A stretch of DNA of 37,602 nt from Bacteroidota bacterium (GTDB lineage: Bacteria > Bacteroidota > Bacteroidia > Flavobacteriales > Flavobacteriaceae), in assembly GCA_029561105.1 (NCBI GenBank), contig JAKQJQ010000048.1:1-37602 (forward strand). Direction: 5' to 3'. Positions within the stretch are counted from its first letter, which is position 1, and each line of letters opens with the position of its first letter. The position numbers were made by a program, and so were the translations under genes. The notes beneath the pieces are model-generated. The model searched no databases. It worked only from the letters and a program-made list of their open reading frames with translations, and was not told the DNA's origin. Below are positions 1 through 25,174 of this stretch, piece after piece.

Positions 1-27
1 TACCGGCAGGAAGATTTTCTTAATCAT
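1..27 (-). CDS. 5' end of an exported or membrane protein gene (partial, runs off the window)
   Basis: Reading the minus strand, an ATG lies at 25-27 and opens a frame that begins MIKKIFLPV before the window ends. The ATG sits inside the last codons of coaX, with an 8-base ATGATTAA overlap that contains the coaX stop, so the two genes are probably translationally coupled. The Lys-Lys followed by hydrophobic residues looks like the start of a signal peptide. Nine codons are too few to name the product. Confidence 0.5.
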
Positions 28-754
28 TTTTGATTTTGTGTTGAAACGTTTGGTTGAGGCTTTCTAAAAGAAAAATTGAATTGGCAAATATGGTATTTTT
101 TAATCGGTTAGCCAAAAATTCGGCATCACCGCCAGTTAAAATTATTATAAATTTTGGATAGCGTTCACGGTACTGCCCAATGAATCCGTCTATTTCATGG
201 GCCAGTCCCTGTACCACTCCCGAGTGGATGGATTGATTGGTGGTGTTGCCGATGAAATCCTGTGGCGCCTCCTTTCCCAGCAACGGCAACCTGGCCGTAA
301 AGCGGTGCAGCGATTCATAGCGCAGCCGCAATCCGGGCGAAATCGCGCCACCCCAATACTTATTGTCTGCATCGATGAAATCATAGGTCACGCAGGTACC
401 GGCGTCGATGACCAGGCGGTTTTGACCCGGATATTGCCAAACGGCACCAGCGGCCAACACCATGCGGTCTATACCCAAGGTTTGCGGCGTGGCGTAGCGG
501 TTCTCAAACGGGAAAGCGTCCTGGTGCGAAACAAAGTGGATGTTGGCCCTCGAAGCAAACGTCAAAAACACCTCTTTTTCTATCCCGCCTACCGAAGCCA
601 CGACCCAATCGCGGCAATCGGGGTAGGTCTGTGAAATTTTTGACAAATAAATTTCGAGCTCGGATTTGTCAAAAACAAACGACCCCAAAATGGTATCGTG
701 CTTAAAGACAGCAGCTTTAATCCTGGTATTTCCGATATCAACAGCGAGCAGCAT
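20..754 (-). CDS. coaX: Type III pantothenate kinase
   Basis: This enzyme phosphorylates pantothenate with ATP in the first step of coenzyme A synthesis, in the cytoplasm. The 244-aa protein opens with the phosphate-binding motif DIGNTRIK. It then carries GIDRM (about residue 95), the second ASKHA-fold nucleotide motif DAGTCVTYDF (about 117-126), the GGAISPG loop, and a late LTGGDAEFL adenosine motif. These are the signatures of the CoaX family, and the length is normal. The frame stays open upstream to a TTG at 853, but that would add 33 residues unrelated to the family, so the ATG at 752-754 is chosen. The stop overlaps the start of the next gene. Type III kinases are not feedback-inhibited by CoA, unlike type I. 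Identification is firm. Confidence 0.93.
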   Translation of the reverse strand: MLLAVDIGNTRIKAAVFKHDTILGSFVFDKSELEIYLSKISQTYPDCRDWVVASVGGIEKEVFLTFASRANIHFVSHQDAFPFENRYATPQTLGIDRMVLAAGAVWQYPGQNRLVIDAGTCVTYDFIDADNKYWGGAISPGLRLRYESLHRFTARLPLLGKEAPQDFIGNTTNQSIHSGVVQGLAHEIDGFIGQYRERYPKFIIILTGGDAEFLANRLKNTIFANSIFLLESLNQTFQHKIKND

Positions 755-806
755 ACGATGGGTTTGAGCCCGCGAAGTTACGAATTGATTTTTTTTAATA
801 TTTGTT

Positions 807-836
807 TTGGATAAATTAAAAATCGTCCTATATTTG
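807..836 (+). promoter_or_regulatory. Promoter of tRNA-Phe (TTG-N19-TATATTTG)
   Basis: A TTG at 807-809 is followed 19 bases later by TATATTTG at 829-836, an exact match to the Bacteroidota vegetative promoter consensus. The tRNA begins 18 bases after the -7 element. Confidence 0.8.
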
Positions 837-854
837 CAGCCGCTGAGAAGCAAT

Positions 855-927
855 GGTACCTTAGCTCAGATGGTAGAGCAATGGACTGAAAATCCATGTG
901 TCCCTGGTTCGATCCCTGGAGGTACCA
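855..927 (+). tRNA. tRNA-Phe (GAA)
   Basis: The 73-base sequence folds as a full cloverleaf. The acceptor stem is GGTACCT (855-861) paired with AGGTACC (920-926), with discriminator A927. The anticodon stem ATGGA/TCCAT encloses the loop CTGAAAA, giving anticodon GAA, and the T-arm contains GGTTCGATCC. CCA is not encoded. It has its own promoter and terminator. The accessory primase/RT module lies immediately downstream, but I found no copy of the tRNA 3' end at the far side of that module, so there is no evidence of integration into this tRNA. Confidence 0.97.
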
Positions 928-930
928 CTT

Positions 931-959
931 AAACCCGAAGTTTTGGCTTCGGGTTTTTT
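931..959 (+). terminator. Rho-independent terminator after tRNA-Phe
   Basis: A 10-bp stem AAACCCGAAG/CTTCGGGTTT with a 6-base loop is followed by a T run (954-959). It starts 4 bases after the tRNA. The same stem may also stop the convergent primase/RT transcript, though the T run on that strand is only three long. Confidence 0.9.
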
Positions 960-988
960 GTTTTTTGTTGTTACGTTGGTGGCGGCTG

Positions 989-2905
989 TTAGCCGTTCGC
1001 CTTTCTTTGTCGCTCTAAAATTTGATAATAATAGCTAAACGGTTTATTATATTTAATTACCTGTCTATCTTCTACTTCTTTAAATTCAATCTCCGGTTCT
1101 TCAATTTCTTTTAATAATTTGTAATACAGTTTATTTCTATTCCTGTCTAGTTGCTTAATTTGTCTAGTAGAATGTTCATTTATTGTTAATTCTCTAAAAC
1201 CATTTTTCCAACATAGGTCAGTTGAAACTTCCTCGAAATTATCAAGACCAATTCTTCCAACTGACATTCCGATCAATCTATTTATCGCAGATTCCGTTGC
1301 TGTTCCTTTTGGTTTTCGCATATTTACTTGAATCGCATTTTTAATTTCTTTTACAATTGTTTTTTGTTTTTGCAACTCTTTTTCAAATGACTTTTTCCGA
1401 ACTCTGATTTTGCCCTTATAATTTATTTCATAACCTACAAAACCAATCCAAGGAAATGATTTCTCTTCTAACTTACCCCATTTATATGGGCCTTTTGATT
1501 TACCATTCCAAAATGGTTTGTAAGTTAATTTATCATCCCAAATTGTCATAAGTTCAGACTCATTTTTAAATTTATGAGGAAATAGTTTTAAATTCATTAA
1601 CGCCTCTTCATACAGGTTTTTTGCTTTAGTACAATTTTCCAAATTATCAGAAATAATAATCATATCATCACAAAATCTCTGATATAAGATATTTTTATCA
1701 GTTATTGTTAAGTCTGCTTGATTAAGATAAATATTTGCAATTAAACCTGAAAGTGCTCCACCTTGAGGAACACCAATTCTTTCGTTTGAAATGTCAGTAT
1801 AGTGTTCGGAAATTGATGATTCAATCCAACTAAATTCACCGTTTATAATTTTATATGATTTCCAATATTCTGAATCATCCGATTTGGGGATGTTAATATT
1901 AAATGCGAAGGATCTAAGATAACTTTTGAAAATAAATTTTGGAACTTCAACATTCAATTCAGGAAAATCCTTATTTACTTTACTTATGAGTTCTTCAAAC
2001 AAAGACTCTGCTATTTTGTGATTTACTGTATCGTAAAATTTCTTCATATCGCATTCTGCAACATAAAGTTCTTTATCAATATGTTTATTTCTAAATTTAA
2101 GAATATCAATTATGCAATCGTGATGGGAAAGTATTTTATTGTTGTCGTTCTTTTTAGACCTAAACGCATATGAGGAATCTTGAAAATAGTCATCAAATAA
2201 TCTAGTTAAAAATTTATTTGTTATACTTAATATGATTCTGTCTTTTAGGTTAAAAATACATATAGGTCGGCATTCATTGACACCTTCTTTTTTTAATTTT
2301 TCCTTTAATTTCGGAAAAATCAAAGGTGTTTTAACTAAATAATGTTGATTACTACTTTCTCGAATAATCTCATTTATAAATATTTGTAAATCAAGATACC
2401 ATTGCTCTTTAACTTCTTTTCCCTCCTGCAATTTGATTGTTTTTAGCAAAGAATAGAAGTTGACATCATTTGAAGTCAATTTTTCATTTCTAATTTTTGA
2501 TTTCATTCTTGATGCAGAACCTAGCCTAACCCATTTTTTTCTTCCCGGTAAAATACTTGATAGAAATTGTGTTAATTCAAAATTGTACTCCTCAAATTCA
2601 TTTGTAGGTTTTTTTAAGGAATTTAGATGATAATTGTATTTAACGTTAGAAGTTAACAAATGAAGCAAATGCTTTTTAGATTTAGTTTTAGCCATTTTGA
2701 CACGAATCTTACAGATTTGTCTCAAGATTTCATTTTCTGTAAAATAGGTTTCAAATTGTTTCATAGTCATATAAAAAAATGGGGTTCCTGTATAGTGATT
2801 GCTCACATATTGACAAAGATACTGACATAGAAGTCTTATACCGTTTAAGCTCTCTGGTTTTAAGCCATTTGGCAGTATTATACCGTTTTCGAGAGTGATA
2901 TTCAC
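989..2905 (-). CDS. Reverse transcriptase of unassigned class (RVT_1 fold), partner of a primase-like protein
   Basis: This 638-aa protein is an RNA-templated DNA polymerase by its motifs. RPICIFNLKDR (about 215-225) precedes the palm. Motif A is ECDMKKFYDTVNH with Asp286. Motif B is GVPQGGALSGLIANIYLNQ. Motif C is FCDD, with the catalytic aspartates at 413-414 and Cys412 where most bacterial RTs have Ala, Val or Ser. GFVGYEINYKGKIRVRKKS follows as the motif E/thumb region. The catalytic aspartates are intact, so it should be active. About 200 residues precede the palm and about 140 follow it. I see no group II intron maturase X or HNH zinc motif, no protease, and no CRISPR or retron neighbourhood. 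The start is GTG, 7 bases after the primase stop; a small hairpin (2919-2932) lies just before it. The DNA is AT-rich unlike both flanks. An anti-phage or mobile-element RT is likely by analogy with UG/DRT families, but the class is not known to me. Confidence 0.85.
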   Translation of the reverse strand: MNITLENGIILPNGLKPESLNGIRLLCQYLCQYVSNHYTGTPFFYMTMKQFETYFTENEILRQICKIRVKMAKTKSKKHLLHLLTSNVKYNYHLNSLKKPTNEFEEYNFELTQFLSSILPGRKKWVRLGSASRMKSKIRNEKLTSNDVNFYSLLKTIKLQEGKEVKEQWYLDLQIFINEIIRESSNQHYLVKTPLIFPKLKEKLKKEGVNECRPICIFNLKDRIILSITNKFLTRLFDDYFQDSSYAFRSKKNDNNKILSHHDCIIDILKFRNKHIDKELYVAECDMKKFYDTVNHKIAESLFEELISKVNKDFPELNVEVPKFIFKSYLRSFAFNINIPKSDDSEYWKSYKIINGEFSWIESSISEHYTDISNERIGVPQGGALSGLIANIYLNQADLTITDKNILYQRFCDDMIIISDNLENCTKAKNLYEEALMNLKLFPHKFKNESELMTIWDDKLTYKPFWNGKSKGPYKWGKLEEKSFPWIGFVGYEINYKGKIRVRKKSFEKELQKQKTIVKEIKNAIQVNMRKPKGTATESAINRLIGMSVGRIGLDNFEEVSTDLCWKNGFRELTINEHSTRQIKQLDRNRNKLYYKLLKEIEEPEIEFKEVEDRQVIKYNKPFSYYYQILERQRKANG

Positions 2906-2912
2906 GAAAGAA

Positions 2913-3938
2913 CTAGCCTTCCGCCTTCGGAACCCCGTTTTTTTGCTTTTTTGTTTTATATCCTTTTAGATTTGCTAAATAAACTATACTATTAAAGTTT
3001 ACTTTTCCTTTTCTTGTTTCATAACAGTTGTATAAAAAGGTTGTACAAGTCACTTCATTAAACTTTTCACCGTCTAACATAGATAACTTTAAGAAGTACT
3101 TGATTCCAATATCATAAGTAAATGTGTTTGAAATTGCCATCCCAACTTTACACCATTCTTCGTATTTGTTAGTAATTGATAAATTTTTATTTCCCAAAAA
3201 CCTTATAATATCAGTCATTATTTTTCTATCAAACTGATTGTTTCTATCAGACGGATTGTAAAGAGCATCTCGATTGCTTGCAAAAGTAATCGAGATTTTG
3301 TCTTTTGTTTTTGATTTGACAGTTACAAAAATATCCTCATCCGAAATTATGAATTTAGTTGATTTTGATTTTAAAACTAATTCATTGTCAAAGGACAAAA
3401 AACAAAGCCTAGTTATATCATTACCGCTTACGTCTAATTCTATATTATACTTTTCTAAAAAATAAAGTGATAATTTTTTAAAAGCACTCTTATGAATCGT
3501 ATCAATGTCAATTTCGTTGTTTTCTAGCTGATAGTCAATGCTAATTAATCCTTTGAAACCGTTATTTGATGGAGAACGCCAAAAAGAAATAACGTATTCA
3601 TCGTGATTTAGATTTTCAAATGTGTTTTTTAATTGTAACTCATCAAGTTTATCAATATCAATAACAATAATTGGATTGTAATTTTTTAGATTTTCACCTG
3701 TTCTTTTAGTACTGAACGTTGCGCTAAAAGTTACGGCAGGTAATTTTTTCTTAAAGTTGTCGTAGTATTCTTTATTTCCTTTTTTTAGTTGTTCTCGTAA
3801 ATTTTCAACTTGTATTTTGTGTTTGTCTGATTTGATATCACTTAAAATTTCTTCTATTGTTGTGTCAAAAGCAATTTCAGACCAAGTGTTTTCTTGATAT
3901 GATACTTTTGTTTGCAAGAAATCCACAACTGTTGTCAT
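2913..3938 (-). CDS. BT4734-like (VirE N-terminal type) primase-like protein with PriCT-2 C-terminal domain
   Basis: The 341-aa protein matches the archaeo-eukaryotic primase-like proteins common in Bacteroidota mobile DNA. Residues about 60-190 carry IVIDIDKL (acidic pair Asp94/Asp96), SPSNNGFKG (the family's second motif, with Lys129 where classical AEP primases have His), and DVSGNDITRLCFLSFD (Asp169, Arg177, Asp184). Residues about 235-330 resemble the PriCT-2 domain: EEWCKVGMAISN, then a Phe/Tyr-rich helix and a final INFNSIVYLANLKGY-like block ending the domain. No helicase domain is fused, unlike many longer homologues. It is the first gene of a two-gene unit with the RT 7 bases downstream, so primer or nucleic-acid synthesis feeding or following the RT is a plausible role. 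That role is inference. ATG start at 3936-3938. AT-rich composition suggests transfer. Confidence 0.82.
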   Translation of the reverse strand: MTTVVDFLQTKVSYQENTWSEIAFDTTIEEILSDIKSDKHKIQVENLREQLKKGNKEYYDNFKKKLPAVTFSATFSTKRTGENLKNYNPIIVIDIDKLDELQLKNTFENLNHDEYVISFWRSPSNNGFKGLISIDYQLENNEIDIDTIHKSAFKKLSLYFLEKYNIELDVSGNDITRLCFLSFDNELVLKSKSTKFIISDEDIFVTVKSKTKDKISITFASNRDALYNPSDRNNQFDRKIMTDIIRFLGNKNLSITNKYEEWCKVGMAISNTFTYDIGIKYFLKLSMLDGEKFNEVTCTTFLYNCYETRKGKVNFNSIVYLANLKGYKTKKQKNGVPKAEG

Positions 3939-3963
3939 TATATACGGTTTTTCGTAAGGTTAT

Positions 3964-4016
3964 AGCTAACTGCGAGAGATGTAAGAATTATTCATACAAA
4001 CGAACGCCCGTTAAAA
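3964..4016. repeat. 53-bp imperfect palindrome, attC-like, at the upstream edge of the primase/RT pair
   Basis: The plus strand reads GCTAAC at 3965-3970 and GTTAAA at 4010-4015, and TAAC can pair with GTTA. Inside them GCG (3972-3974) pairs with CGC (4005-4007), and the core GTAAGAATTATTCATAC (3981-3997) is almost self-complementary. The three paired blocks share nearly the same centre with single unpaired bases between them. That is the layout of integron attC sites, but the outer boxes do not fit the RYYYAAC/GTTRRRY consensus exactly. It also lies inside the probable 5' leader of the primase transcript, so an RNA hairpin is the alternative reading. Confidence 0.4.
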
Positions 4017-4036
4017 AATACCTGCTTGTACCAACC

Positions 4037-4070
4037 CAAATATATAACTTTCCCACAACCCCCACCACAA
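4037..4070 (-). promoter_or_regulatory. Candidate promoter of the primase/RT operon
   Basis: On the minus strand TTG (4070-4068) is followed after 23 bases by TATATTTG (4044-4037). The -7 element is perfect and the spacing is at the long end of the accepted range. Transcription would start near 4030, giving a leader of about 90 bases before the primase ATG. Confidence 0.5.
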
Positions 4071-4110
4071 ATCCCAAAATTATTCACGTTGCACAGCTAT
4101 CCTTTCACCT

Positions 4111-4159
4111 CTGTTACAAAATCCCTGTTACAAAATACTTATAACAAAAATTTTGTAAC
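4111..4159. promoter_or_regulatory. Repeated operator-like sites (two direct, one inverted) before the XRE regulator
   Basis: CTGTTACAAAAT occurs twice in direct orientation, at 4111-4122 and 4125-4136 (14-bp period). ATTTTGTAAC, the exact reverse complement of GTTACAAAAT, lies at 4150-4159. The last copy also forms ACAAAA-A-TTTTGT with adjacent bases (4145-4156) and overlaps the TTG element of the regulator's promoter. The arrangement fits autoregulation by the XRE protein encoded 40 bases downstream. Confidence 0.5.
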
Positions 4160-4182
4160 AAAACCCAAATCCCCTAAATTTA
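4153..4182 (+). promoter_or_regulatory. Candidate promoter of the XRE regulator
   Basis: TTG at 4153-4155, 19 bases, then TAAATTTA at 4175-4182, one mismatch from TAnnTTTG. The ATG follows 16 bases after the -7 element, giving a very short leader. Confidence 0.5.
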
Positions 4183-4198
4183 CAACAAACCACCCACC

Positions 4199-4726
4199 AT
4201 GAAAAAACGCAATTCCCTCCGCACCGCGCTCAACCTCAAACAAGAAGACATCGCCATGTTATTGGGTGTGAGCCGCGCCCACTGGGGCATGTACGAAATC
4301 GGCAAGCGTGACCTCCCGCCACGCGCCTCACAATTGCTTTTTGAAATGCTTGAGACGCTTGAGACGCCAAAGGCTATGACCACCTTAACAGCAGCCCAAC
4401 GCAAACAACAAAACGAAACAGAACAGCAACTTTTAGCGCAACTACTCCGCGAAAACGAATACCAGCAGCAGCTTCTCACCAGAGCAATGGCTGCTACCCA
4501 GACCAAAGAGTCGGCGCAGCTCAGGCTGTCTATACTTGCCGATCATTTTGGCAGTACCAATAGTGGTAAACCTAAAAACGCCGAAGCCGAACGCTCGCAT
4601 AAAGTCCTCAAAACCCTTCATAAGCCAACCGCCCACCACACCGCCACCCTCCTCCAACAACAAATCAAACTCCAAACCCTACAATTCGAACAACAGCTCC
4701 TCGAATCCAAAATCAAAGACCTTTAG
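4199..4726 (+). CDS. XRE-family helix-turn-helix transcriptional regulator with glutamine-rich C-terminal region
   Basis: The first 50 residues of this 175-aa protein form a Cro/CI-type helix-turn-helix: LKQEDIAMLLGVSRAHWGMYE followed by IGKRDLPP, where GVSRAHWGMYE is the recognition segment. The rest, about residues 60-175, is rich in Gln, Leu and Glu, with predicted long helices and probable coiled coil (for example QQNETEQQLLAQLL and QQQIKLQTLQFEQQLL), suited to dimerisation. No sensor or peptidase domain is seen. It points away from the primase/RT operon and sits directly behind repeated operator-like sites, so it probably regulates itself and might also control the divergent module. That link is inference; many flavobacteria carry similar solitary regulators. 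Its composition is like the chromosome to the right, not the AT-rich module to the left. Confidence 0.8.
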   Translation: MKKRNSLRTALNLKQEDIAMLLGVSRAHWGMYEIGKRDLPPRASQLLFEMLETLETPKAMTTLTAAQRKQQNETEQQLLAQLLRENEYQQQLLTRAMAATQTKESAQLRLSILADHFGSTNSGKPKNAEAERSHKVLKTLHKPTAHHTATLLQQQIKLQTLQFEQQLLESKIKDL

Positions 4727-4773
4727 TTTTAAAGAAATCACAAATGCACTACCCACACCGCGATTTATGCCTA

Positions 4774-4795
4774 CATTTAGTAGACAAGCTAAATG
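4774..4795 (+). repeat. Inverted repeat over the start of the AsmA-like gene
   Basis: CATTTAG (4774-4780) and CTAAATG (4789-4795) are perfect complements separated by 8 bases. The second arm contains the first in-frame ATG of the downstream gene, so the hairpin could hide that start. The first arm overlaps a -7-like TACATTTA (4772-4779), but no TTG is well placed upstream. Confidence 0.35.
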
Positions 4796-4798
4796 TGC

Positions 4799-6343
4799 AT
4801 GGAAAAGCGAAAAAAAATCCTCCTCGGTGTCCTCATTGCTATAGGCCTTTTACTCCTACTGGGTATCGGCGTCAATGTCTGGGTGAAGACCCAACTGCCC
4901 AAGCTCCTCAACAAACAGAGCGATACGTACGCGATTGCCTATAAGGACATTGATATTGCGGTGTTTTCGGGCAATGTTGACATTACCGACGCCACGATTG
5001 TGCCACGCGCTACCCTTCGGGACACCGCCAACAAGGCCGGGATTTATGCCAAGGTGAAAAAAATCCAAATCCGCAATTTTAAAATCCTGAGTGTGATTTT
5101 CTCGGATAGGATTTCGGCGCGCAGCCTCTCGCTCACCTCGCCCCAGGTTACGCTGTACCAGAAAGAGGCCGGCGACAAGACGAGGGACAACGCGATCCGG
5201 TCGCTCGAGAAAATCATTTCGGTATCTGACTTTTTTGTCTACAACGGCGATTTCAGGATCATGGCGGCACAAGAGGGAAAACCCAAGCTCAGCCTCACCA
5301 ACATCCGCCTGGCTGTCGATGGGATTACCGTAACCGATGCCCACCTCAAAAGCAAGATCCCTTTCGGTTATGAAAAATACCGATTCTCGTGCGACAGCAT
5401 CTACTTCAACGCAGGGAAGTTCTACGATGTCATCTCGCGCAACATCCAATCCACCGATAACGATTTGAGCATTGCCGATATCCGTATGGTGCCCAAGCAC
5501 ACGCGCCGCGAATTCGTTACGATCCTCACGCACGAGAAAGACCAGTTCAACCTATCGGCACAAAGCATCAGGCTGCAAAACCTCGACTGGGGCTACAAGG
5601 GCGATGATTTGTTTGTGCGTACCGCACTGGCCACCATAGGCAACTGCCACGCAGACATCTACCGCAACAAACTGCCCGCAGACGACCTCACCAAAAAACA
5701 CCTCTACAACAAACTGCTGCGCGACCTCGATTTTGAGCTTCAGGTAGACACCTTAAAGATCAAAAACTCGCTGGTGGTGTATGAGGAGGAAAAGTCTTTT
5801 GACAAAGGCTCGGGCAAGATCGTATTTGACCGTTTCAACCTCACGGCCACCAACCTCTGCAGCGGGTTCAAGCGCAACAAGGCCGATGACCTCAAGATCA
5901 AGATCAATTGCCTGTTTCAGGGCGCCTCGCCGCTCGATGTAGACTGGTCGCTCAACATCCTCGACAAAACCGACGGCTTTCGCATCATGGGAACGGTTCG
6001 CAACTTTAAGGTAGAAAAAATAGACCCTTTCCTTAAACCGTATATGAATGTGTCGGCCCAAGGTACCCTTGACCGGGTGCATTTTAAATTCAAGGGGAAT
6101 GACCTGCGCGACTCGGGGCAGTTTGCCATCCAATATGACAATCTCAAACTCAAGATTTACCAAAAAGACGACCGCAACAAAGTCAACAAACTCCTCACGG
6201 CGGTGGGCAATCTGCTCGTCAAGAATGACAGCAAAGGTGAGGTGAAAAGTGCCGATATAGCGCTCGAACGCATCCCGGAAAAGTCGTTTTACAATTTTTT
6301 GTGGCGCAGTGTGGCCGAGGGTTTGAAAAAGACATTGATTTAA
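4799..6343 (+). CDS. AsmA/DUF748-like membrane-anchored periplasmic protein
   Basis: The 514-aa protein begins MEKRKK followed by one hydrophobic membrane segment (about residues 6-27), then a long beta-rich periplasmic region with no further membrane span. Phrases such as YKDIDIAVFSGNVDITDATI near the start, and a C-terminal ERIPEKSFYNFLWRSVAEGL, resemble the AsmA-like/DUF748 group. Members of this group are large inner-membrane-anchored, lipid-handling or envelope-assembly proteins. The specific job cannot be read from sequence. An alternative ATG two codons earlier (4793) is also possible; the MEKRKK start is the more usual one. The gene starts 72 bases after the XRE gene stop, in the same direction, so the two may share a transcript. 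Confidence 0.65.
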   Translation: MEKRKKILLGVLIAIGLLLLLGIGVNVWVKTQLPKLLNKQSDTYAIAYKDIDIAVFSGNVDITDATIVPRATLRDTANKAGIYAKVKKIQIRNFKILSVIFSDRISARSLSLTSPQVTLYQKEAGDKTRDNAIRSLEKIISVSDFFVYNGDFRIMAAQEGKPKLSLTNIRLAVDGITVTDAHLKSKIPFGYEKYRFSCDSIYFNAGKFYDVISRNIQSTDNDLSIADIRMVPKHTRREFVTILTHEKDQFNLSAQSIRLQNLDWGYKGDDLFVRTALATIGNCHADIYRNKLPADDLTKKHLYNKLLRDLDFELQVDTLKIKNSLVVYEEEKSFDKGSGKIVFDRFNLTATNLCSGFKRNKADDLKIKINCLFQGASPLDVDWSLNILDKTDGFRIMGTVRNFKVEKIDPFLKPYMNVSAQGTLDRVHFKFKGNDLRDSGQFAIQYDNLKLKIYQKDDRNKVNKLLTAVGNLLVKNDSKGEVKSADIALERIPEKSFYNFLWRSVAEGLKKTLI

Positions 6344-6371
6344 TCGCGACTGTCCCTTTTGATTTTGGCGT

Positions 6372-6429
6372 GCCGCAAGCGGCCAGGCTGTACGCTCTTA
6401 TCTTTTTACCCTGCGGGATAAAAAGGATA
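6372..6429. repeat. Structured intergenic element with two hairpins between convergent genes
   Basis: GCCGCAAGCGGC (6372-6383) forms a short hairpin. It is followed by a T-rich/A-rich stem with CCC-TGC-GGG at its tip (about 6399-6429), in which TTTTTA pairs with TAAAAA. It separates the AsmA-like gene (+) from queG (-) and probably ends transcription from one or both. The compact two-hairpin layout resembles interspersed intergenic elements of flavobacteria, but one copy in one window cannot prove that. Confidence 0.4.
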
Positions 6430-6465
6430 ACCGCTGCCATCCTTCACGCGGGCGTCACCGGTGGC

Positions 6466-7389
6466 TTACCTCAAGAAATCGATGTTGCGCTGCAGCCCCG
6501 AAAACTTGGTGCGCTTCACCGCCGAATCCTTAAAGACCTTATTGAAAGTTTCCTGTGTAATCTCCTCCCAATCCTTCTTGCTCATCCACAGCAAATCAGG
6601 GTTCGGGTCAAACAACGGTTCACTGTGCGGTTTAGAGAAGCGGTTCCAGGGGCAAACGTCCTGGCAGACATCGCAGCCAAACGCCCAATCATCGAATTGC
6701 CCTTTCATTTCTATGGGTAAATTGTCCTTGAGTTCAATGGTGAAATACGAGATGCATTTGCTGCCGTCTACCACATAGGGCGCTACGATGGCTTGGGTGG
6801 GACAGGCGTCGAGACAGGCCGTACAAGTACCGCAGTGGTCGGTTACAGCGTGGTCGTAGTCTAGCTCAAGGTCTACGATGAGTTCGGCGATGAAGTAAAA
6901 CGAGCCGGTTTTTTGGGTGAGCAGGTTGCTGTTCTTGCCAATCCAACCCAGCCCGCTTTTGGCTGCCCAGGCTTTATCCAACACGGGCGCCGAGTCTACA
7001 AACGCGCGGCCATGGACTTCGCCTATTGTTTCGCCAATCGAATGTAGCAATTCCCTCAACTTCTCCTTAATCACGAAATGGTAATCCTGTCCGTAAGCAT
7101 ACTTGGATATCTTGTAGCTCTCGGGGTTTTGGGTTTGGGAAGGGTAATAGTTGAGCAGCAACGAGATGACACTTTTGGCACCGTCTACGAGCAAAGTCGG
7201 GTCGAGCCGCTTGTCGAAATGGTTTTCCATGTACGACATTTGGCCGTGCATTTGTTGGTTGAGCCAGCGTTCTAAGCGCGGTGCCTCCTGCTCAAGGAAA
7301 CCCGCGCGCGAAACACCACACGACAAAAAGCCGAGGCGTTGGGCTTCGGATTTGATGAAAGCGGTGTATTTCTCTTTGTTGTTGATCAA
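6466..7389 (-). CDS. queG: Epoxyqueuosine reductase
   Basis: QueG is a cobalamin-dependent iron-sulfur enzyme that reduces epoxyqueuosine to queuosine at position 34 of tRNAs with GUN anticodons, the last step of queuosine synthesis. The 307-aa protein has the N-terminal DUF1730 region, for example [17 protein letters not shown] at about 49-65. It also has two 4Fe-4S clusters of the ferredoxin type, [12 protein letters not shown] and [11 protein letters not shown], with the additional Cys in [11 protein letters not shown]. Length is standard for the short form without a HEAT-repeat tail. The only in-frame start is TTG at 7387-7389, because a stop lies just upstream; the encoded [16 protein letters not shown] matches the usual N-terminus. 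It is convergent with the AsmA-like gene and 110 bases downstream of the P450. Confidence 0.93.
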
Positions 7390-7402
7390 GATTGGGTTTT
7401 AC

Positions 7403-7430
7403 GGCAAAGTTCGCAAAGATTTTCGCAAAG
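7403..7430. repeat. Three short repeats of (C/G)GCAAAG
   Basis: GGCAAAG (7403-7409), CGCAAAG (7412-7418) and CGCAAAG (7424-7430) lie between the P450 and queG. They are small and AT-flanked. No promoter match is seen in this 110-base gap. Confidence 0.4.
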
Positions 7431-7499
7431 TCGACCGGGTTTTTTACGTAATGTGTTTGGCATTGGTTGCAGGTTGCTTTTCGCCTTGTGGATTGGGGC

Positions 7500-8834
7500 T
7501 TATCGCGCAGAAAAAGTCACTTCGGCCCCGACCGGTTTCAACGTAATCAACGGATTGAACTGCACGGTTGGGCTGCAGCTTTTGATGTGGTATTTCCCCA
7601 CAAGGTAAGACAGGGCCAATCCCATTTCATACATCGCAAATCCCATCCCGATACACATGCGCGGCCCGGCGCCAAACGGATAAAAATACTGCATCGACTG
7701 TTTGCGTTGCGCGCCTAAAAAACGTTCGGGATTAAAGCGTTCGGGGTTTTCCCAGTATTTGGGATTGCGGTGCAATTCGTAGAAAGACACGCCAATCAGG
7801 GTACCTTTTTGAATGGAATAGCCCAAAAGGGTGTCATCCACGATATTTTCACGGTCGGTAATCCAGGCAGGCGGATAAAGTCGCATCGATTCATTGATGA
7901 CCGCATTGGTGTAGGTCATTTGTTGGAGTTGCTCCACGAGGTTTGGGGTTTGTGAGGCAATCGCGGTCACTTCCTCGAACACCTTTTGTTGGATTTCGGG
8001 ATGGTTGCCCAACAAATGCAAGGTAAACGTGAGCGCGTTGGCAGTGGTTTCGTGGCCGGCAATAAATAGGATTTTGATTTCGTCTATGAGTTGTTGCGTG
8101 GCCATCGGCTCGCCGGTATCTTCATAACGGGTGTCGAGCAACATGTCAAGCAGGTCACCTGGTTTGCTGCCCGATTGGAGGCGCTGTTCAATGATTTCCC
8201 GGATGATGGCATCGGTTTCGAGTGCCATGTGTTGGTGTTTTTTGACCTGTCCGCTGAGTTTGTACCACCAGGCTTTGTAGGGCGTCCGGATTTCCTTGAT
8301 CAGGAACTCCTGTACTTCGCTGATGATCACTTTGAGCCGGTCCATTTTAAGGTCATCCGCCGAAAGCCTAAACAGGGATTTGGCCACCACGTTAAAGGCC
8401 AGTTGGTTCATCACCGGGAAAAGGGCCACGGCTTGGTCCTGGGGCAAATCTTTGAGTTCCCACAAGATGGTCTGTTGCATGTTCCCCGTGAGCTGGTTCA
8501 TTTGCTGCTTGTGGAATGCGGGCTGGATGAGCCGGCGTTGCTTGAGCCAAAAATCGCCATTGACCGTGAGCAACCCGTGCCCGAGGTATTTGGAGATGAA
8601 CTTGGTCTGCAATTCTGATTTCTGGTAGCTTTTCTGCTGTTGTTGCAGGATGTGCAAGGCCACATCATTGTCGCGCGAGAGGATGACGTGTTTGCCACGT
8701 CCGATCCTGAGCGAAAAGGTATCGCCAAACTTATCGAAAAATTCCTTGTGGAACGGGATGGGGTTCTTACGGATGCGCTCGGCCTTTAACAAGAAATGCA
8801 CTATCGAGAGTTGCTTGGGATAGTTGTATTTCAT
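7500..8834 (-). CDS. Cytochrome P450
   Basis: This is a haem-thiolate monooxygenase of 444 aa. The I-helix oxygen-activating motif AGHETTANALTF lies at about 265-276. The K-helix ExxR is ESMRLYPPAW. The meander/PERF region reads FNPERF. The haem-binding loop FGAGPRMCIGMGFAMYE supplies the Cys ligand. The I-helix HETTA and the overall length resemble the bacterial class related to CYP102/eukaryotic-type P450s rather than the short soluble CYP105 type. There is no fused reductase and no adjacent ferredoxin or reductase gene, so redox partners must come from elsewhere. The substrate cannot be inferred. A TTG three codons upstream is open, but the ATG at 8832-8834 is the better start. Confidence 0.92.
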   Translation of the reverse strand: MKYNYPKQLSIVHFLLKAERIRKNPIPFHKEFFDKFGDTFSLRIGRGKHVILSRDNDVALHILQQQQKSYQKSELQTKFISKYLGHGLLTVNGDFWLKQRRLIQPAFHKQQMNQLTGNMQQTILWELKDLPQDQAVALFPVMNQLAFNVVAKSLFRLSADDLKMDRLKVIISEVQEFLIKEIRTPYKAWWYKLSGQVKKHQHMALETDAIIREIIEQRLQSGSKPGDLLDMLLDTRYEDTGEPMATQQLIDEIKILFIAGHETTANALTFTLHLLGNHPEIQQKVFEEVTAIASQTPNLVEQLQQMTYTNAVINESMRLYPPAWITDRENIVDDTLLGYSIQKGTLIGVSFYELHRNPKYWENPERFNPERFLGAQRKQSMQYFYPFGAGPRMCIGMGFAMYEMGLALSYLVGKYHIKSCSPTVQFNPLITLKPVGAEVTFSAR

Positions 8835-8946
8835 GCGATTCAAATTTTAGATTGGTGTCGATTGTTGGCCGAAATTAAAGATCGTTCCTCTTTGCTTTCA
8901 ATGGGTCTATTGCCATTACTTGGGACGTTACCTGCCATGACCTCAA

Positions 8947-9014
8947 AAATCCAAAATCCAAAATCCAAAATCTGAAATCTAAAATCTGAAATCTAAAATC
9001 TGAAATCTAAAATC
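8947..9014. repeat. Tandem heptad repeats (AAAATCC / AAATCTGAAATCTA) ending in the ruvB stop codon
   Basis: The region is made of 7-base units, first AAAATCC copies and then alternating AAATCTG and AAATCTA copies. About nine units run without a break up to the last codons of ruvB, so the ruvB TGA lies in the repeat. Such low-complexity runs are common between flavobacterial genes and expand by slippage. The rest of the 178-base gap upstream of the P450 holds no feature I can support. Confidence 0.7.
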
Positions 9015-10035
9015 AAAACAGTCCGCCCTGCAAGTTCGTATTGATTTTACCAAGGTGCCTATAGGCTTTCTCAGTGACTTCGCGGCCGCGCGGCGTACGC
9101 ATGATAAACCCCTCCTGGATCAGGAACGGTTCGTAGACTTCCTCGATGGTCTCGGCACTTTCTGAAACGGCGGTGGCCAGCGTAGAAATCCCAACCGGCC
9201 CTCCTTTGTATTTGTCTATGATGGTGCCCAGGATCTTGTTGTCCATTTCATCAAGCCCGTGGGCATCTACATGGAGCGCCTTGAGAGCGTAGCGGGCAAT
9301 CTCGATCTCGATTTTCCCGTTGCCTTTGATTTGGGCGAAATCGCGTACGCGGCGCAAAAGTGAATTGGCGATACGCGGTGTACCCCGGCTGCGTCCGGCG
9401 ATTTCTATGGCGGCTTCCATGGTGATGGGCATCTTTAGGATTGCGGCGGAGCGCTGCACGATGGTGGTGAGCAATTCGGTGGTGTAATATTGCAATCGGC
9501 TTTGGATACCAAAACGCGCGCGCATCGGGGCGGTAAGCAAGCCCGAGCGCGTGGTGGCGCCAATCAGCGTAAACGGATTGAGGTTGATTTGTACCGTACG
9601 GGCGTTGGGACCTGATTCGATCATGATATCGATCTTGAAATCTTCCATAGCCGAATACAGGTATTCTTCGACTATTGGACTCAAACGGTGGATCTCGTCA
9701 ATGAAAAGCACATCGCGGTCATCGAGGTTGGTGAGCAAACCCGCTAGGTCGCCTGGCTTATCCAAGACGGGGCCTGATGTGATTTTGATGCCTACACCCA
9801 GTTCGTTGGCCAGGATGTTGGCCAAAGTGGTTTTCCCCAGCCCCGGCGGCCCATGGAACAACGTATGGTCGAGTGCCTCATTGCGTTGGTTGGCTGCCTG
9901 TACAAACACCTTAAGGTTTTCCAGGATCTGGTCCTGTCCGGCGAAGTCGTCAAAGGAAAGCGGCCTGAGCCTTTTTTCAAGATCGAGTTCTTCGGGTTTG
10001 AAGTGTTGGTTGGTGGGATCGAGGTTTTCGTTCAT
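9013..10035 (-). CDS. ruvB: Holliday junction branch migration ATPase RuvB
   Basis: RuvB is the hexameric AAA+ motor that drives branch migration with RuvA during recombinational repair. The 340-aa protein has [12 protein letters not shown] at the start and Walker [13 protein letters not shown] (about 62-73). Walker B is LFIDEIHRL, and sensor 1 is [18 protein letters not shown]. Arginine-rich sensor 2 [18 protein letters not shown] and a C-terminal winged helix ending in [17 protein letters not shown] complete it. The frame is open for 20 codons upstream, but family alignment and a -7 element just before the ATG (10033-10035) fix the start at MNENLDPTN. ruvA and ruvC are not in the window. 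Confidence 0.96.
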
Positions 10036-10039
10036 GCTA

Positions 10040-10065
10040 CAAATATAGCTAAATGTGTGGTGCAA
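10040..10065 (-). promoter_or_regulatory. Candidate ruvB promoter, probably leaderless
   Basis: On the minus strand TATATTTG occupies 10047-10040, only 4 bases before the ruvB ATG, so the transcript would start at or within the start codon. The nearest TTG (10065-10063) is 15 bases away, slightly short of the usual spacing. Confidence 0.45.
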
Positions 10066-10098
10066 ATAAAAATGCCTTTCGTTTCGGAAAGGCATTTT
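10066..10098 (-). terminator. Terminator of the act-cox operon
   Basis: A 12-bp perfect stem AAAATGCCTTTC/GAAAGGCATTTT with loop GTTTCG (10069-10098) lies 11 bases after the coxA stop. On the minus strand it runs into a T-rich tail. It ends the long respiratory transcript just before the ruvB promoter. Confidence 0.85.
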
Positions 10099-10109
10099 CT
10101 ATGTTTTGA

Positions 10110-11918
10110 TTAGTGATGTAATTCTTCTTCACCGGGCATCATCGGGACGTTTTGAGGAACAAAGTCTTCTTCATGACCAGGTTTGCTGTAATCGTATGGC
10201 CAACGGTGTACGTGAGGGATTTCTCCTTCCCAGTTTCCGTGGATGTGTTTGATGGGTGCGGTCCACTCTAAGGTAGTAGAACGCCATGGATTCTGTACGG
10301 CGCGTTTTCCGTAGAAGATGCTCACGAAAAAGTTGTAAAGGAACACCAATTGGAAGGCTCCACCTACCAGAGCGAAAGTAGTCATCAACACGTTTACGTT
10401 TTGCAAGTCGTCGAACAACGGGAAGTTGGTGTTGGTATAGTAACGTCTTGGGAGACCCGCCAGCCCAATGAAGTGCATCGGGAAGAATACTCCGTAAGCA
10501 CAAACCGTAGTAACCCAAAAGTGTACAAACCCTAGATTCTTGTTGAGCATCCTTCCAAACATTTTAGGGTACCAGTGATAGATTCCGGCAAACATTCCGT
10601 AAAGGGCAGAGATACCCATTACCAGGTGGAAGTGCGCTACTACAAAATAAGTATCGTGAACGTTGATGTCAAGGGTAGAGTCTCCGAGGATAATCCCGGT
10701 AAGACCTCCGGTAATGAAAGTTGAAACGAATCCGATTGAATACAACATGGCCGGGTTCATTTGCAGATTACCTTTCCATAAAGTGGTAATCCAGTTGAAA
10801 GCTTTTACCGCGGATGGAATCGCAATCAACAAAGTCGTAAAGGTAAATACAGATCCAAGGAACGGGTTCATACCCGACATAAACATGTGGTGCCCCCAAA
10901 CGATCGTTGAAAGGAACGCGATGGCTAAAATTGACATAATCATCGCACGGTAACCGAAGATCGGTTTACGCGAATTGGTTGCCATAATTTCTGAAACCAA
11001 TCCCATCGCCGGAAGGATTACGATGTAAACTTCGGGGTGCCCCAAGAACCAGAACAAGTGCTCGAAAAGTACCGGTGAACCACCTTGGTAGTGCAATACT
11101 TCTCCGGCAATGTAAATGTCTGAAAGGAAGAATGAAGTTCCGAAGCTTCTGTCCATGATTAACAATAGCGCGGCCGACAAAAGTACCGGGAACGATACGA
11201 TACCAATCACCGCGGTGATGAAGAATGCCCAAACGGTAAGTGGCAATCTGGTCATCGACATTCCTTTGGTTCTCAGGTTGATTACAGTTACCACGTAATT
11301 CAACGATCCCAAAAGTGAGGAGGCGATGAATACGGCCATAGAAACCAACCACAAAGTCATACCGGTTCCTGATCCGCCAATAGCTTGGGGTAAGGCGCTT
11401 AGTGGCGGATAAATCGTCCATCCTGCCGAAGCTGGTCCAGATTCAACGAACAACGAAGAAACCATGATACAGCTCGAGGTAAAGAACAACCAATACGAAA
11501 CCATGTTCAGGAAGCCTGACGCCATGTCTCGCGCGCCGATTTGAAGCGGAATCAAGAGGTTGCTGAAAGTTCCCGACAAGGCTGCCGTCAATACAAAGAA
11601 TACCATGATGGTTCCGTGTATGGTAACCAGCGCCAAATAAATGTCATTGGTCATTACGCCGTTAGGCGCAAACTTGTCTCCTAAAAGGAAATTGAAGATT
11701 TTAAACGATTCTTCTGGCCAGGCCAATTGCATCCTGAAAAGCATTGACATTCCAACCCCGATAATTCCCATGATAATACCTGTGATGAGGTATTGCTTGG
11801 AAATCATCTTATGATCGATCGAAAAGATATATTTGGTGATGAAAGTATCTTTATGGTGGTGTTCATGATCGTGATCATGTGCGTGGTCGTGAGCGTGATC
11901 GTGAGCTTCTGCTGACAT
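10110..11918 (-). CDS. coxA: Cytochrome c oxidase subunit I (aa3 type)
   Basis: This is the catalytic haem-copper subunit that reduces oxygen to water and pumps protons in the inner membrane. The 602-aa protein has 12 or more membrane helices. Metal ligands are visible: the low-spin haem a His in TIHGTIMVFF (about 100), the CuB and cross-linked Tyr motif GHPEVYIVILP (about 295), the CuB pair GHHMF (about 340), and VAHFHLVMG (about 430) with both haem ligands. The His-Pro-Glu-Val-Tyr of A-type oxidases is complete. The N-terminus is an unusual His/Asp run, HDHAHDHAHDHDHEHHH, before the first helix. It is last in the act-cox operon, 40 bases after coxB; no subunit III or IV gene follows here. 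Confidence 0.96.
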   Translation of the reverse strand: MSAEAHDHAHDHAHDHDHEHHHKDTFITKYIFSIDHKMISKQYLITGIIMGIIGVGMSMLFRMQLAWPEESFKIFNFLLGDKFAPNGVMTNDIYLALVTIHGTIMVFFVLTAALSGTFSNLLIPLQIGARDMASGFLNMVSYWLFFTSSCIMVSSLFVESGPASAGWTIYPPLSALPQAIGGSGTGMTLWLVSMAVFIASSLLGSLNYVVTVINLRTKGMSMTRLPLTVWAFFITAVIGIVSFPVLLSAALLLIMDRSFGTSFFLSDIYIAGEVLHYQGGSPVLFEHLFWFLGHPEVYIVILPAMGLVSEIMATNSRKPIFGYRAMIMSILAIAFLSTIVWGHHMFMSGMNPFLGSVFTFTTLLIAIPSAVKAFNWITTLWKGNLQMNPAMLYSIGFVSTFITGGLTGIILGDSTLDINVHDTYFVVAHFHLVMGISALYGMFAGIYHWYPKMFGRMLNKNLGFVHFWVTTVCAYGVFFPMHFIGLAGLPRRYYTNTNFPLFDDLQNVNVLMTTFALVGGAFQLVFLYNFFVSIFYGKRAVQNPWRSTTLEWTAPIKHIHGNWEGEIPHVHRWPYDYSKPGHEEDFVPQNVPMMPGEEELHH

Positions 11919-11958
11919 AATTGTTTACTTTATATGTTTTTACTTTAATTCTGGAGAT

Positions 11959-13104
11959 CTATTTTGCCGCAACTGCGGTAGCCATTTTAGAAGTGTCGGC
12001 CGGTTTGGCAGGAGCATCAGCTGGTGCATCTGCCGCAGCCGAAGCTTTCACTTCTTCGACAATTGTTGGTTTTGAGGCCAACCATTTTTTGTATTCGGCT
12101 GGCGTGTCTACAACAATTTTCATTTGCATATTGTAGTGTGAGGAGCCGCAAATTTTGTTACAAAGCAATAAATAATCGAAAGTGTAAGGATCTAAGGCTG
12201 GTTCGCCTTTGGCTACCAACTCAGTACTTTTCTTGGCGCGAATCGCATTGATATTGGCAACTTTCTCTTGCATGAAAGTCATGTCGCGCATTTCCTGGGT
12301 GGTGTAAATAGGCTCGAATGCAAATTCGGTTACCATTCCGGGAACGCAGTTCATCTGTGCGCGGAAGTGTGGCATGTAAGCCGAGTGCAATACATCTTGC
12401 GAACGGATTTTGAAGTGAACCTTCTTACCTTTTGGCAAATGAAGTTCGGTTACTACCTTATCATCTTGCGCATATTTGTCTCCCATGTCTACTCCTAGCG
12501 AATTGACACCGTCGATATAACGTACGTTGGCTTTTCCCAGAACATCATCATCACCGGCATATCGGGCAGTCCATTTGAATTGTTGGGCATAAATTTCTAC
12601 AACCACGGTATCTTCATCATCTTCTACAAACATGATGTTGGTCCAGGCGTACAGTCCGTAAAGAATCAAACCAGCCAAAACAATAGCCGGGATAACACTC
12701 CAGATAAACTCAAGCCTATTGTTGTCGGCAAAATACAAAGCTTTTTGTTCTTTTCTTCCTCTATATTTGAAAGCAAAATAGTGGAGTAAGGCCTGGGTAA
12801 TGGTTTGTACCGTGAAAATCAGCACCCAAGTTATATTCATAAGGTTATCCACAAGGCTACCGTGTGCAGAAGCCGGAGTATGCAAAACCAAATGACCCCA
12901 TTTGAGCAAACTGTAAATGGTCAGGATGTAGATGAATCCCAAAAAGGCAAACATCAAATAACCCTGAAGGTTATTGTCCTTGTCATCGGCTACCTGAGAA
13001 TCGTTAGATTGGGCGCCTACCTGAGTTAAATCGAATATTTTAGTCAATTGCCATAGTGCAACAGCCAATAAAACTAAAACTATAATTACCAACAAACTTG
13101 TCAT
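11959..13104 (-). CDS. coxB: Cytochrome c oxidase subunit II (CuA subunit)
   Basis: Subunit II accepts electrons from cytochrome c through the binuclear CuA centre. The 381-aa protein has a hydrophobic N-terminal segment (residues 2-22), two further transmembrane helices (about 48-70 and 90-112), and a periplasmic cupredoxin domain. The CuA motif CNKICGSSHYNM supplies Cys315, Cys319, His323 and Met326. The chain ends in a flexible Ala/Pro/Lys tail of about 35 residues and has no fused cytochrome c domain (no CxxCH). The enzyme is therefore aa3 rather than caa3, and its electron donor must be a separate haem protein such as the N-terminal domain of ActA or ActE. The first hydrophobic segment is additional to the usual two helices. 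Confidence 0.95.
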   Translation of the reverse strand: MTSLLVIIVLVLLAVALWQLTKIFDLTQVGAQSNDSQVADDKDNNLQGYLMFAFLGFIYILTIYSLLKWGHLVLHTPASAHGSLVDNLMNITWVLIFTVQTITQALLHYFAFKYRGRKEQKALYFADNNRLEFIWSVIPAIVLAGLILYGLYAWTNIMFVEDDEDTVVVEIYAQQFKWTARYAGDDDVLGKANVRYIDGVNSLGVDMGDKYAQDDKVVTELHLPKGKKVHFKIRSQDVLHSAYMPHFRAQMNCVPGMVTEFAFEPIYTTQEMRDMTFMQEKVANINAIRAKKSTELVAKGEPALDPYTFDYLLLCNKICGSSHYNMQMKIVVDTPAEYKKWLASKPTIVEEVKASAAADAPADAPAKPADTSKMATAVAAK

Positions 13105-25120: not shown

Positions 25121-25174
25121 AAAATCTTTTTGTTGTTACTTGAGTTGCGTTGTTGTATGTTGTGGTAAAGATCG

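What the first reader, a model, noticed from the sequence alone, without database searches (positions are those of the whole stretch)
989..3938. Two-gene primase-like plus reverse transcriptase module
A BT4734/PriCT-2 primase-like protein and a 638-aa reverse transcriptase are encoded on one transcript with a 7-base gap, in strongly AT-rich DNA between a tRNA gene and chromosomal genes of more balanced composition. Both proteins keep their key acidic residues. Primases make primers and RTs use them, so the pair could be a self-contained DNA synthesis system, perhaps anti-phage. Bacterial UG/DRT reverse transcriptases are known defence proteins, and at least one class carries a fused primase-polymerase domain, but I do not know a described system with this two-gene layout. 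Defence is inference from analogy and location.
Basis: partly seen in the sequence, partly recalled or inferred. Interest (0 to 1): 0.85.

Follow-up and report, generated by a model that had tools for sequence, protein, structure and literature searches.

The report
Reverse transcriptase, primase and hidden RNA
A bacterial gene pair for a reverse transcriptase and a DNA primase, already catalogued as a candidate anti-phage system, turns out to have a third part, a structured RNA just in front of the reverse transcriptase gene that probably serves as its template, which suggests a three-part machine that writes short DNA to stop viruses.

Summary
Both genes are real, but the RT start and the "7-base gap" are wrong. 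The conserved start is ATG 2764 (591 aa); 148 nt separate it from the primase. That gap and the last 31 nt of the primase gene hold a structured RNA (2773-2943, minus strand). In 19 relatives, 19 of 28 pairs changed on both sides yet stay paired (0/500 shuffles). A covariance model gives 32 matches in 80 sources, each directly before the RT; the other 48 sources, divergent and primase-less loci among them, rest on other evidence.

The pair is not new: PADLOC lists RT_UG39 and RTasVirE-PriCT2 under DRT. No paper I could search mentions an RNA for UG39; the founding survey is not held.

66 of the 79 best relatives carry the primase (49 co-directional, 17 divergent). The tree fits one acquisition, moderately supported. 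The RT model's best Foldseek match is DRT9 RT-ncRNA.

Best reading: a Class-2-like, RNA-dependent DRT that recruited an AEP primase, perhaps to start the second DNA strand. Template, product, primase role and defence are inferred.

The parts
989..2764 (-). UG39-type reverse transcriptase, 591 aa, from the conserved ATG 2764 (not GTG 2905)
2913..3938 (-). stand-alone VirE_N/PriCT-2 (AEP-type) primase, 341 aa
   Evidence: PADLOC RTasVirE-PriCT2 E 9.5e-131; Pfam BT4734-like_N and PriCT_2; model pLDDT 90.1, AEP-type matches
2773..2943 (-). structured non-coding RNA, about 171 nt; its first 31 nt overlap the end of the primase gene
   Evidence: covarying helices, covariance-model match 135.5 bits (the window is in the training set), fold z -3.29, 1 of 200 shuffles as good, RT-sense strand by G-U versus A-C count
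2929..2936 (-). 5' arm of the closing helix, GGGGUUCC
   Evidence: pairs with 2781-2788; the helix varies by compensatory change among relatives; the window's own contiguous helix taken alone is not beyond chance (p 0.12)
2781..2788 (-). 3' arm of the closing helix, GGAACCCC
2811..2827 (-). candidate template loop UGUCAGUAUCUUUGUCA with two UGUCA copies 12 nt apart
   Evidence: unpaired in the consensus and conserved; CAGUAU in 35 of 50 co-directional loci against 112 of 3631 control stretches; the repeat itself is not significant in the window, p 0.196
1664..1669 (-). RT active-site D366-D367 (RFCDD)
   Evidence: identical in 70 of 70
1031..1036 (-). C-terminal S577-Y578, candidate protein primer
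   Evidence: S577 in 67 of 70, Y578 in 64 of 70 rows; analogy to C-terminal priming residues reported for DRT9 and DRT10
855..928 (+). tRNA-Phe beside the element (context, not a part of the system)
   Evidence: ARAGORN, Rfam

Best explanation
This is a UG39-type defence-associated RT locus with three parts: a structured RNA (2773-2943), a Class-2-like RT that most likely binds that RNA and copies a short loop of it into DNA (probably starting from a hydroxyl residue of its own C-terminal tail, as reported for DRT9 and DRT10), and a stand-alone AEP-type primase carried by most of the relatives examined. Most likely role of the primase: to start a complementary strand on the RT's single-stranded product so that the system makes double-stranded DNA. 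Infection would release or stabilise the product and stop the phage or the cell. Shown here by comparison: the RNA and its strand, the conserved active sites, the linkage. Inferred: RNA as template, protein priming, primase role, trigger, defence.
For: RT and primase each match a dedicated PADLOC DRT model; 10 of 10 further RTs tested have RT_UG39 as best match. RNA: 19 sequences, 28 pairs, 91.7% of cells paired, 19 pairs with both-side changes, 0/500 shuffles as high, 42-62% paired when slid; 32 model matches, each directly before an RT gene, 13 of them outside the training set; an added helix crossing stem 2, own partner 13.2 against 10.6 with swapped partners, p 0.0005; divergent loci: 51 predicted pairs, 12 with both-side change, in 6 sequences; strand by G-U to A-C cells 70:12 and 43:1; closing helix above the 95th percentile of 572 controls in 50 of 77 loci. 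RT model: DRT9 RT-ncRNA complexes are the four best Foldseek matches, best E 4.4e-15. The next named DRT models after UG39 are Drt2, Drt9 and UG17, systems reported as RNA-templated. Catalytic residues identical in 70 of 70 RTs and 64 of 64 primases. Tree. Defence neighbourhood.
Against: No expression, binding or phage data. The window's own closing helix taken alone is not beyond chance (p 0.12). Model R1 misses 48 of 80 sources. In 7 primase-less loci RNAalifold gives only 5 pairs and no compensatory change, so their RNA rests on a shared conserved stretch. By VIA-align Z, G2L4 (22.1), DGR (21.9) and GsI-IIC (21.5) RTs tie with DRT9 (21.0). No DRT9 or DRT10 sequence was available for the tree. 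The repeat pattern expected for telomerase-like templates is significant in only 9 of 57 loci. The second-strand role is analogy alone.
Confidence: 0.7

Rival explanations
1. Retron-like tripartite toxin-antitoxin: the RT-RNA-DNA complex holds the primase-like protein inactive, and phage interference releases it as the effector.
For: RNA directly before the RT with a closing helix, and a partner gene that differs between loci: OLD-type ATPase-nuclease genes stand upstream in L064, L066 and L070 and a PD-(D/E)XK nuclease in L059 where the primase is absent.
Against: Retron RT motifs (recalled: VTG, NAxxH) occur in 1 and 3 of 70 RTs and neither in the window; retron-type models score far below UG39 (673.6 bits): PADLOC RT_II-A 26.7 (that it is a retron model is recalled), NCBIfam retron_St85_RT 32.2 against a cut-off of 235; the primase keeps its catalytic residues and is not shown to be toxic.
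Confidence: 0.15
2. The primase supplies the primer for the RT's first strand on the RNA.
For: CRISPR RT-primase fusions exist (CaCART-CAPP; abstract and outline of PMC10415136); the genes are tightly linked.
Against: UG39 RTs without the primase exist (13 of 79, one of them cut by its contig start) and those aligned keep the RT catalytic residues; DRT9 and DRT10 are reported to prime from the RT itself, and UG39 has a conserved C-terminal Ser-Tyr.
Confidence: 0.2
3. Group II intron or DGR remnant with a passenger primase.
For: The RT core resembles group II and DGR RTs in fold and weakly in sequence (group_II_RT_mat 96.8 bits, cut-off 300).
Against: Separate branch in the tree, 93/91; no Rfam intron match in window 1-6000; no direct repeat of 40 or more in window 1-12000; dedicated UG39 model at E 6e-203.
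Confidence: 0.03
4. The conserved RNA is a regulatory leader of the RT mRNA (attenuator or RT-binding autoregulator), not a template.
For: It ends within about 20 nt of the RT start in the matched loci.
Against: A structure stays with the RT when the primase is divergent and a conserved stretch when it is absent; the DRT9 template RNA lies in the same place, immediately upstream of its RT (passage); a conserved unpaired core.
Confidence: 0.12

Closest known systems
PADLOC RT_UG39 + RTasVirE-PriCT2 (candidate DRT; from the UG/Abi survey, recalled as Mestre et al. 2022, not held)
   Same: Both proteins match these two models; same two genes.
   Different: These are protein models, with no RNA part; the structured RNA, the divergent layout and the primase-less branch come from the calls here.
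myRT class UG28b (PMC8934634, passages)
   Same: RT class split off UG28 (= DRT9), of which 45-46% co-occur with VirE_N; very likely the same group under another name (inference).
   Different: No RNA in the passages seen; naming not cross-checked by sequence.
DRT9 (UG28)
   Same: RNA directly upstream of the RT, near full-length fold match, C-terminal tail with conserved hydroxyl residues.
   Different: DRT9 has a poly-U template and no primase; the UG39 loops aligned are not poly-U.
DRT10 (UG17 + SLATT + 137-nt RNA)
   Same: Three-part layout of RNA, partner protein and RT; template loop after a stem-loop.
   Different: Partner is SLATT, not a primase; its A-B-A' pattern is reported for 85-95% of RNAs there, here it is significant in only 9 of 57 loci (different test).
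DRT7 (UG10) RT-primase-polymerase fusion
   Same: RT and primase-polymerase in one system.
   Different: Fusion protein, reported as protein-templated in preprints; here separate genes and an RNA.
CART-CAPP (CRISPR RT - primase-polymerase)
   Same: RT coupled to an AEP primase-polymerase; its RT domain 8bgj aligns to the model, Z 18.3.
   Different: CRISPR adaptation, fused (abstract and outline only).

Membership tests
UG39 DRT (PADLOC) | RT matches RT_UG39 best | tested here: met
   673.6 bits against 79.2 for the next model; 10 of 10 other RTs checked also
UG39 DRT (PADLOC) | adjacent VirE-PriCT2 primase | tested here: met
   434 bits; present in 66 of 79 best relatives
UG39 DRT (PADLOC) | protects against phage | not testable with these tools
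   only neighbourhood evidence
Class 2 DRT (RNA-templated UG RTs) | structured RNA encoded next to the RT | tested here: met
Class 2 DRT (RNA-templated UG RTs) | RT groups with DRT2/DRT9/DRT10 in a tree | tested here: inconclusive
   only 2 Drt2 rows and no DRT9/DRT10 rows could be placed; fold match to DRT9 best by Foldseek but tied by Z
Class 2 DRT (RNA-templated UG RTs) | RNA serves as template for repeat cDNA | not testable with these tools
   repeat pattern significant in 9 of 57 loci only
Retron | RT motifs VTG and NAxxH (recalled) | tested here: not met
   in 1 and 3 of 70, neither in the window
Group II intron | intron RNA around the RT | tested here: not met
   no Rfam intron match in window 1-6000 up to E 1
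DGR | template and variable repeats | tested here: not met
   no direct repeat of 40 or more in window 1-12000; diverged repeats could be missed
AEP primase | catalytic acidic and basic residues conserved | tested here: met
   D94, D96, K129, D169, R177 in 64 of 64; that these are the AEP motifs is recalled
AEP primase | AEP fold | tested here: met
   S-2L PrimPol Z 8.2, rmsd 3.5 over 135 residues, and mostly AEP enzymes below it at Z 4-7; Foldseek alone gave nothing at E <= 0.001

The most novel reading that the evidence does not exclude
UG39 is a three-part DNA-writing immune machine of a kind not yet described: an RNA-templated, self-primed RT makes short-repeat single-stranded DNA, and a separate AEP primase starts the second strand, giving double-stranded repeat DNA from one RNA loop. 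The template would differ by subclade: GUAUCA units, two in L007 and three in L009; a 12-nt UGUCA...UGUCA unit in the window group; and a 5-nt GAUUC unit in the primase-less branch, where nuclease genes often stand next door.
Probability: 0.3. Interest if true: 0.85.

Novelty: new variant of a known kind. Interest (0 to 1): 0.62.

Why it matters
Few RNA-templated DRTs are described (DRT2, DRT3, DRT9, DRT10 in the papers seen), and each makes its own kind of DNA. A conserved RNA in the UG39 group would add one whose partner is a primase, so that which protein starts which strand can be tested gene by gene. The RNA coordinates also mean that constructs built only from the annotated proteins, or with a shortened gap, could lack or damage an essential part. 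The two orientations and the primase-less branch give natural controls.

Tried and rejected
Integron-like cassette: the two ends of the element looked like attC halves (recalled consensus). AACGGCTAACAGC occurs once in the genome, and CGGCTAACAGC once in the window, as chance allows; the downstream one is a terminator-like hairpin. Dropped.

Phage-borne origin: the IMG/VR scan gave 72 distant RTs (best E 5e-8), none UG39-like; the scan depends on peptide patterns.

Telomerase-like A-B-A' as a general rule: 9 of 57 loci at p <= 0.05 (20 of the 77 loci had no anchor motif), and the anchors included CGATTCGATT, which favours the primase-less rows; L059, L065 and L068 were centred on another motif. 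In the window p is 0.196. Kept only in the novel case.

Reference tree with DRT9 and DRT10: searches for Drt9 and UG17 in 148 genomes each returned weak matches (best 130 and 175 bits), taken to be mostly group II introns and RT fusions from their lengths and scores, not tested, so these families could not be placed. L158 (a Drt2 match with stops), L163 and one viral row (L131) that the final script named did not enter the 46 rows.

Solved structures by sequence for the primase: nothing beyond chance (best E 0.18). One weak R1 match in genome G016 (31.9 bits, E 0.001) has neither UG39 RT nor primase in its 3.1-kb locus; judged chance. G154, whose UG39 locus is divergent, had no R1 match.

Insertion site: panK with tRNA-Phe is matched in the genus (61 of 61 genomes match some part), but the two genes on the other side of the element were not found in 19 relatives' loci of about 3.9 kb, so an empty site was not shown.

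Rows left out: primase alignment A8 has the window plus 63 of 66 loci (L007, L013, L019 cut or frameshifted); RT alignment A9 has the window plus 69 of 79 (L013, L019, L027, L038, L045, L051, L053, L069, L074, L080 out); RNA training set 19 rows (L019, near-copy of L017, out). RT starts: 76 of 79 located (not L051, L069, L083). Neighbour test: 10 loci judged near-copies left out, 129 of 332 flanking ORFs sampled, from 60 of 66 loci; controls are 129 ORFs from 10 stretches of four genomes, G142, G154, G012 and G364.

Script faults: and 72 rows of an alignment file replaced seven loci (L059, L064, L065, L066, L068, L070, L080); the helix test was rerun on the right sequences, and six of the seven RTs, with L083, were added by hand to A9. 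One search failed and was repeated in changed form.
Full report
Observation. The minus strand of 989-3938 carries a primase-like gene (2913-3938) and an RT gene. Pfam finds BT4734-like_N and PriCT_2 in the first and RVT_1 in the second. A tRNA-Phe gene lies at 855-928. The element has 28.5% GC against 44.9% for the rest of the window; the two other contigs of the same genome that could be read (two more were masked) have 44.7% and 47.2%, so the host DNA is not AT-rich and the element is probably acquired. The RT gene is also lower in GC than its locus in each of nine relatives checked, by about 0.5 to 12 points.

Correction of the gene model. The 638-aa reading starts at a GTG whose first 47 codons have no counterpart. 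Four relatives found with the UG39 model start at the equivalent of ATG 2764, and of 76 relatives with a located start none has 47 or more open codons upstream. The RT is therefore 591 aa, and 148 nt separate its start from the primase stop. In 48 of the 49 co-directional relatives this distance is 64 to 227 nt; in L058 the genes overlap by 17 nt.

The RNA. The stretch folds with z -3.29 against its own shuffles, one of 200 being as good. Nineteen sequences align. For the consensus of 28 pairs, 91.7% of cells pair, 19 pairs have changes on both sides, none of 500 shuffles reaches these values, and sliding the partner by 1 to 3 columns drops pairing to 42-62%. Related sequences can exceed shuffles without structure; the slid controls and the wholesale change of the closing helix between subfamilies speak against that. 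A further helix between the loop of stem 2 and the strand after it would make a pseudoknot: mean helix score 13.2 with the own partner against 10.6 with swapped partners (p 0.0005), though L008, L009 and L027 show no good helix.

A covariance model from these 19 searched 80 sources, 1.14 Mb: 32 matches at E up to 1, 29 of them at E 0.013 or better, each directly before an RT gene and none elsewhere; 13 are outside the training set, 10 of these at E 0.013 or better. The other 48 sources have no match. In 247 whole genomes the model hits the window's genome and G142, both at UG39 loci, and one weak place without RT or primase.

In the divergent loci the same position holds another closed structure; in six of them RNAalifold predicts 51 pairs, 12 with both-side changes. 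G-U cells outnumber A-C cells 70 to 12 in the first set and 43 to 1 in the divergent set, which places the RNA on the RT strand. Across 77 RT starts the best contiguous closing helix has a median score of 27 against 18 upstream of 572 other ORFs; 50 of 77 exceed the control 95th percentile and 20 the 99th. The window itself does not (score 22, shuffle p 0.12). No Rfam family matches this place in window 1-6000, and ten relatives' loci gave only a tRNA.

In the primase-less branch, seven loci (L059, L064, L065, L066, L068, L070, L080) share a conserved stretch before the RT, with TTTCCAT, ATACAA and ATTCGATT, but RNAalifold finds only five pairs there and no compensatory change; 5 of 11 primase-less loci with a located start exceed the closing-helix 95th percentile of 24 (L059, L070, L080, L075, L081). 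The RNA is thus well supported for the window's group and the divergent six, and only likely for the rest.

The proteins. PADLOC gives RT_UG39 (673.6 bits) for the RT and RTasVirE-PriCT2 (434 bits) for the primase; after a generic RT model (79.2) the next named DRT models are Drt2 (75.4), Drt9 (75.1) and UG17 (73.5). RT D239, D245, D366 and D367 are identical in 70 of 70 rows, and a C-terminal Ser-Tyr (S577 in 67, Y578 in 64 of 70) nearly so. Primase D94, D96, K129, D169, D174 and R177 are identical in 64 of 64. The RT model (pLDDT 90.3) has DRT9 complexes as its four best Foldseek matches, best E 4.4e-15; by VIA-align Z a G2L4 RT (22.1), a DGR RT (21.9), a group II RT (21.5) and DRT9 (21.0, the longest alignment of these four, 428 residues) are about tied. 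The primase model (pLDDT 90.1) aligns best to the S-2L PrimPol AEP domain (Z 8.2) and then mostly to other AEP enzymes; Foldseek alone gives nothing at E 0.001 or better.

Distribution. The UG39 model is found in 5 of 395 genomes sampled from the phylum, the window's own included. Of these, 66 have the primase next to the RT (49 co-directional, 17 divergent) and 13 do not, one because its contig begins inside the RT; the more distant relatives were not examined. In a 46-row tree UG39 is one side of a branch (93/91); co-directional primase-bearing rows (15) group at 100/99, divergent ones (4) at 99/97, both together at 86/67, and the 7 primase-less rows lie outside. One gain of the primase and one change of orientation fits this, with moderate support and an unknown root.

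Neighbourhood. Of nine upstream proteins of primase-less RTs, three are OLD-type (L064, L066, L070), one a PD-(D/E)XK nuclease (L059) and one BrxL (L080). Among 129 flanking proteins 121 PADLOC models are matched at E 1e-20, against 4 models among 129 control proteins. These are counts of models, many of them redundant (methyltransferases), not of proteins.

What is known. The review PMC13213688 (part 1 of 2 read) lists DRT2, DRT3 and DRT9 as RNA-containing and DRT7 as an RT-primase-polymerase fusion; PMC12632851 (sections 6, 8, 9 and part of 15 read) adds DRT10; a passage of PMC12489045 names UG2, UG3+UG8 and UG28 among RNA-bearing groups. [quoted passage not shown] Searches for UG39 with reverse transcriptase, and for RTasVirE and similar names, found no paper on this RT. 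The survey behind the PADLOC names (recalled as Mestre et al. 2022) is not held, so an RNA reported there cannot be excluded.

Mechanism. By analogy with DRT9 (RNA immediately upstream, C-terminal tyrosines as likely primers; passages) and DRT10 (template loop after a stem-loop, C-terminal serine), the RT would bind the RNA and copy its conserved unpaired loop. In the window this loop reads UGUCAGUAUCUUUGUCA (2811-2827), with UGUCA at both ends, 12 nt apart; CAGUAU occurs in 35 of 50 co-directional loci (window included), 3 of 16 divergent and 0 of 11 primase-less ones, against 112 of 3631 control stretches. L009 carries three GUAUCA units where L007 has two, and the seven primase-less loci carry ATTCGATT. 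Yet direct repeats reach p 0.05 in only 9 of 57 loci, and not in the window, so repeat synthesis is a proposal. The primase would start the second strand; DRT3, which makes double-stranded repeat DNA with two RTs, is the nearest parallel.

Verdict. A known candidate two-gene DRT, misread at its RT start, with a structured RNA that I have not seen described. The RNA is well supported; its function is inferred.

Noticed in passing
L071:8001-14736: In Flavobacterium difficile the UG39 pair lies about 4 kb from a panK/tRNA-Phe stretch similar to window 61-933 (66% identity), so this tRNA site may be a recurrent insertion place.
   Followed up: partly
L064:6028-7782, L066:6044-7804, L070:55-1488: OLD-type ATPase-nuclease genes stand directly upstream of three primase-less UG39 RTs, a possible alternative partner.
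   Followed up: partly
L009:7926-8000 against L007, L008 and L027: The presumed template loop has three GUAUCA units in L009, two in L007, and a partly altered first unit in L008 and L027.
   Followed up: partly
window:22346-25120: Translation initiation factor IF-2 gene; the strong AT skew at 23500-25500 (to -0.44) falls mostly on it. Ordinary.
   Followed up: no
window:8946-9018: Short tandem array, period 7, 10.4 copies of AAAATCT, beside ruvB.
   Followed up: no
L080:8001-9494: The UG39 RT match of this Aliifodinibius MAG has stops inside (L006) and a shortened frame, probably a decayed copy; BrxL lies upstream.
   Followed up: no
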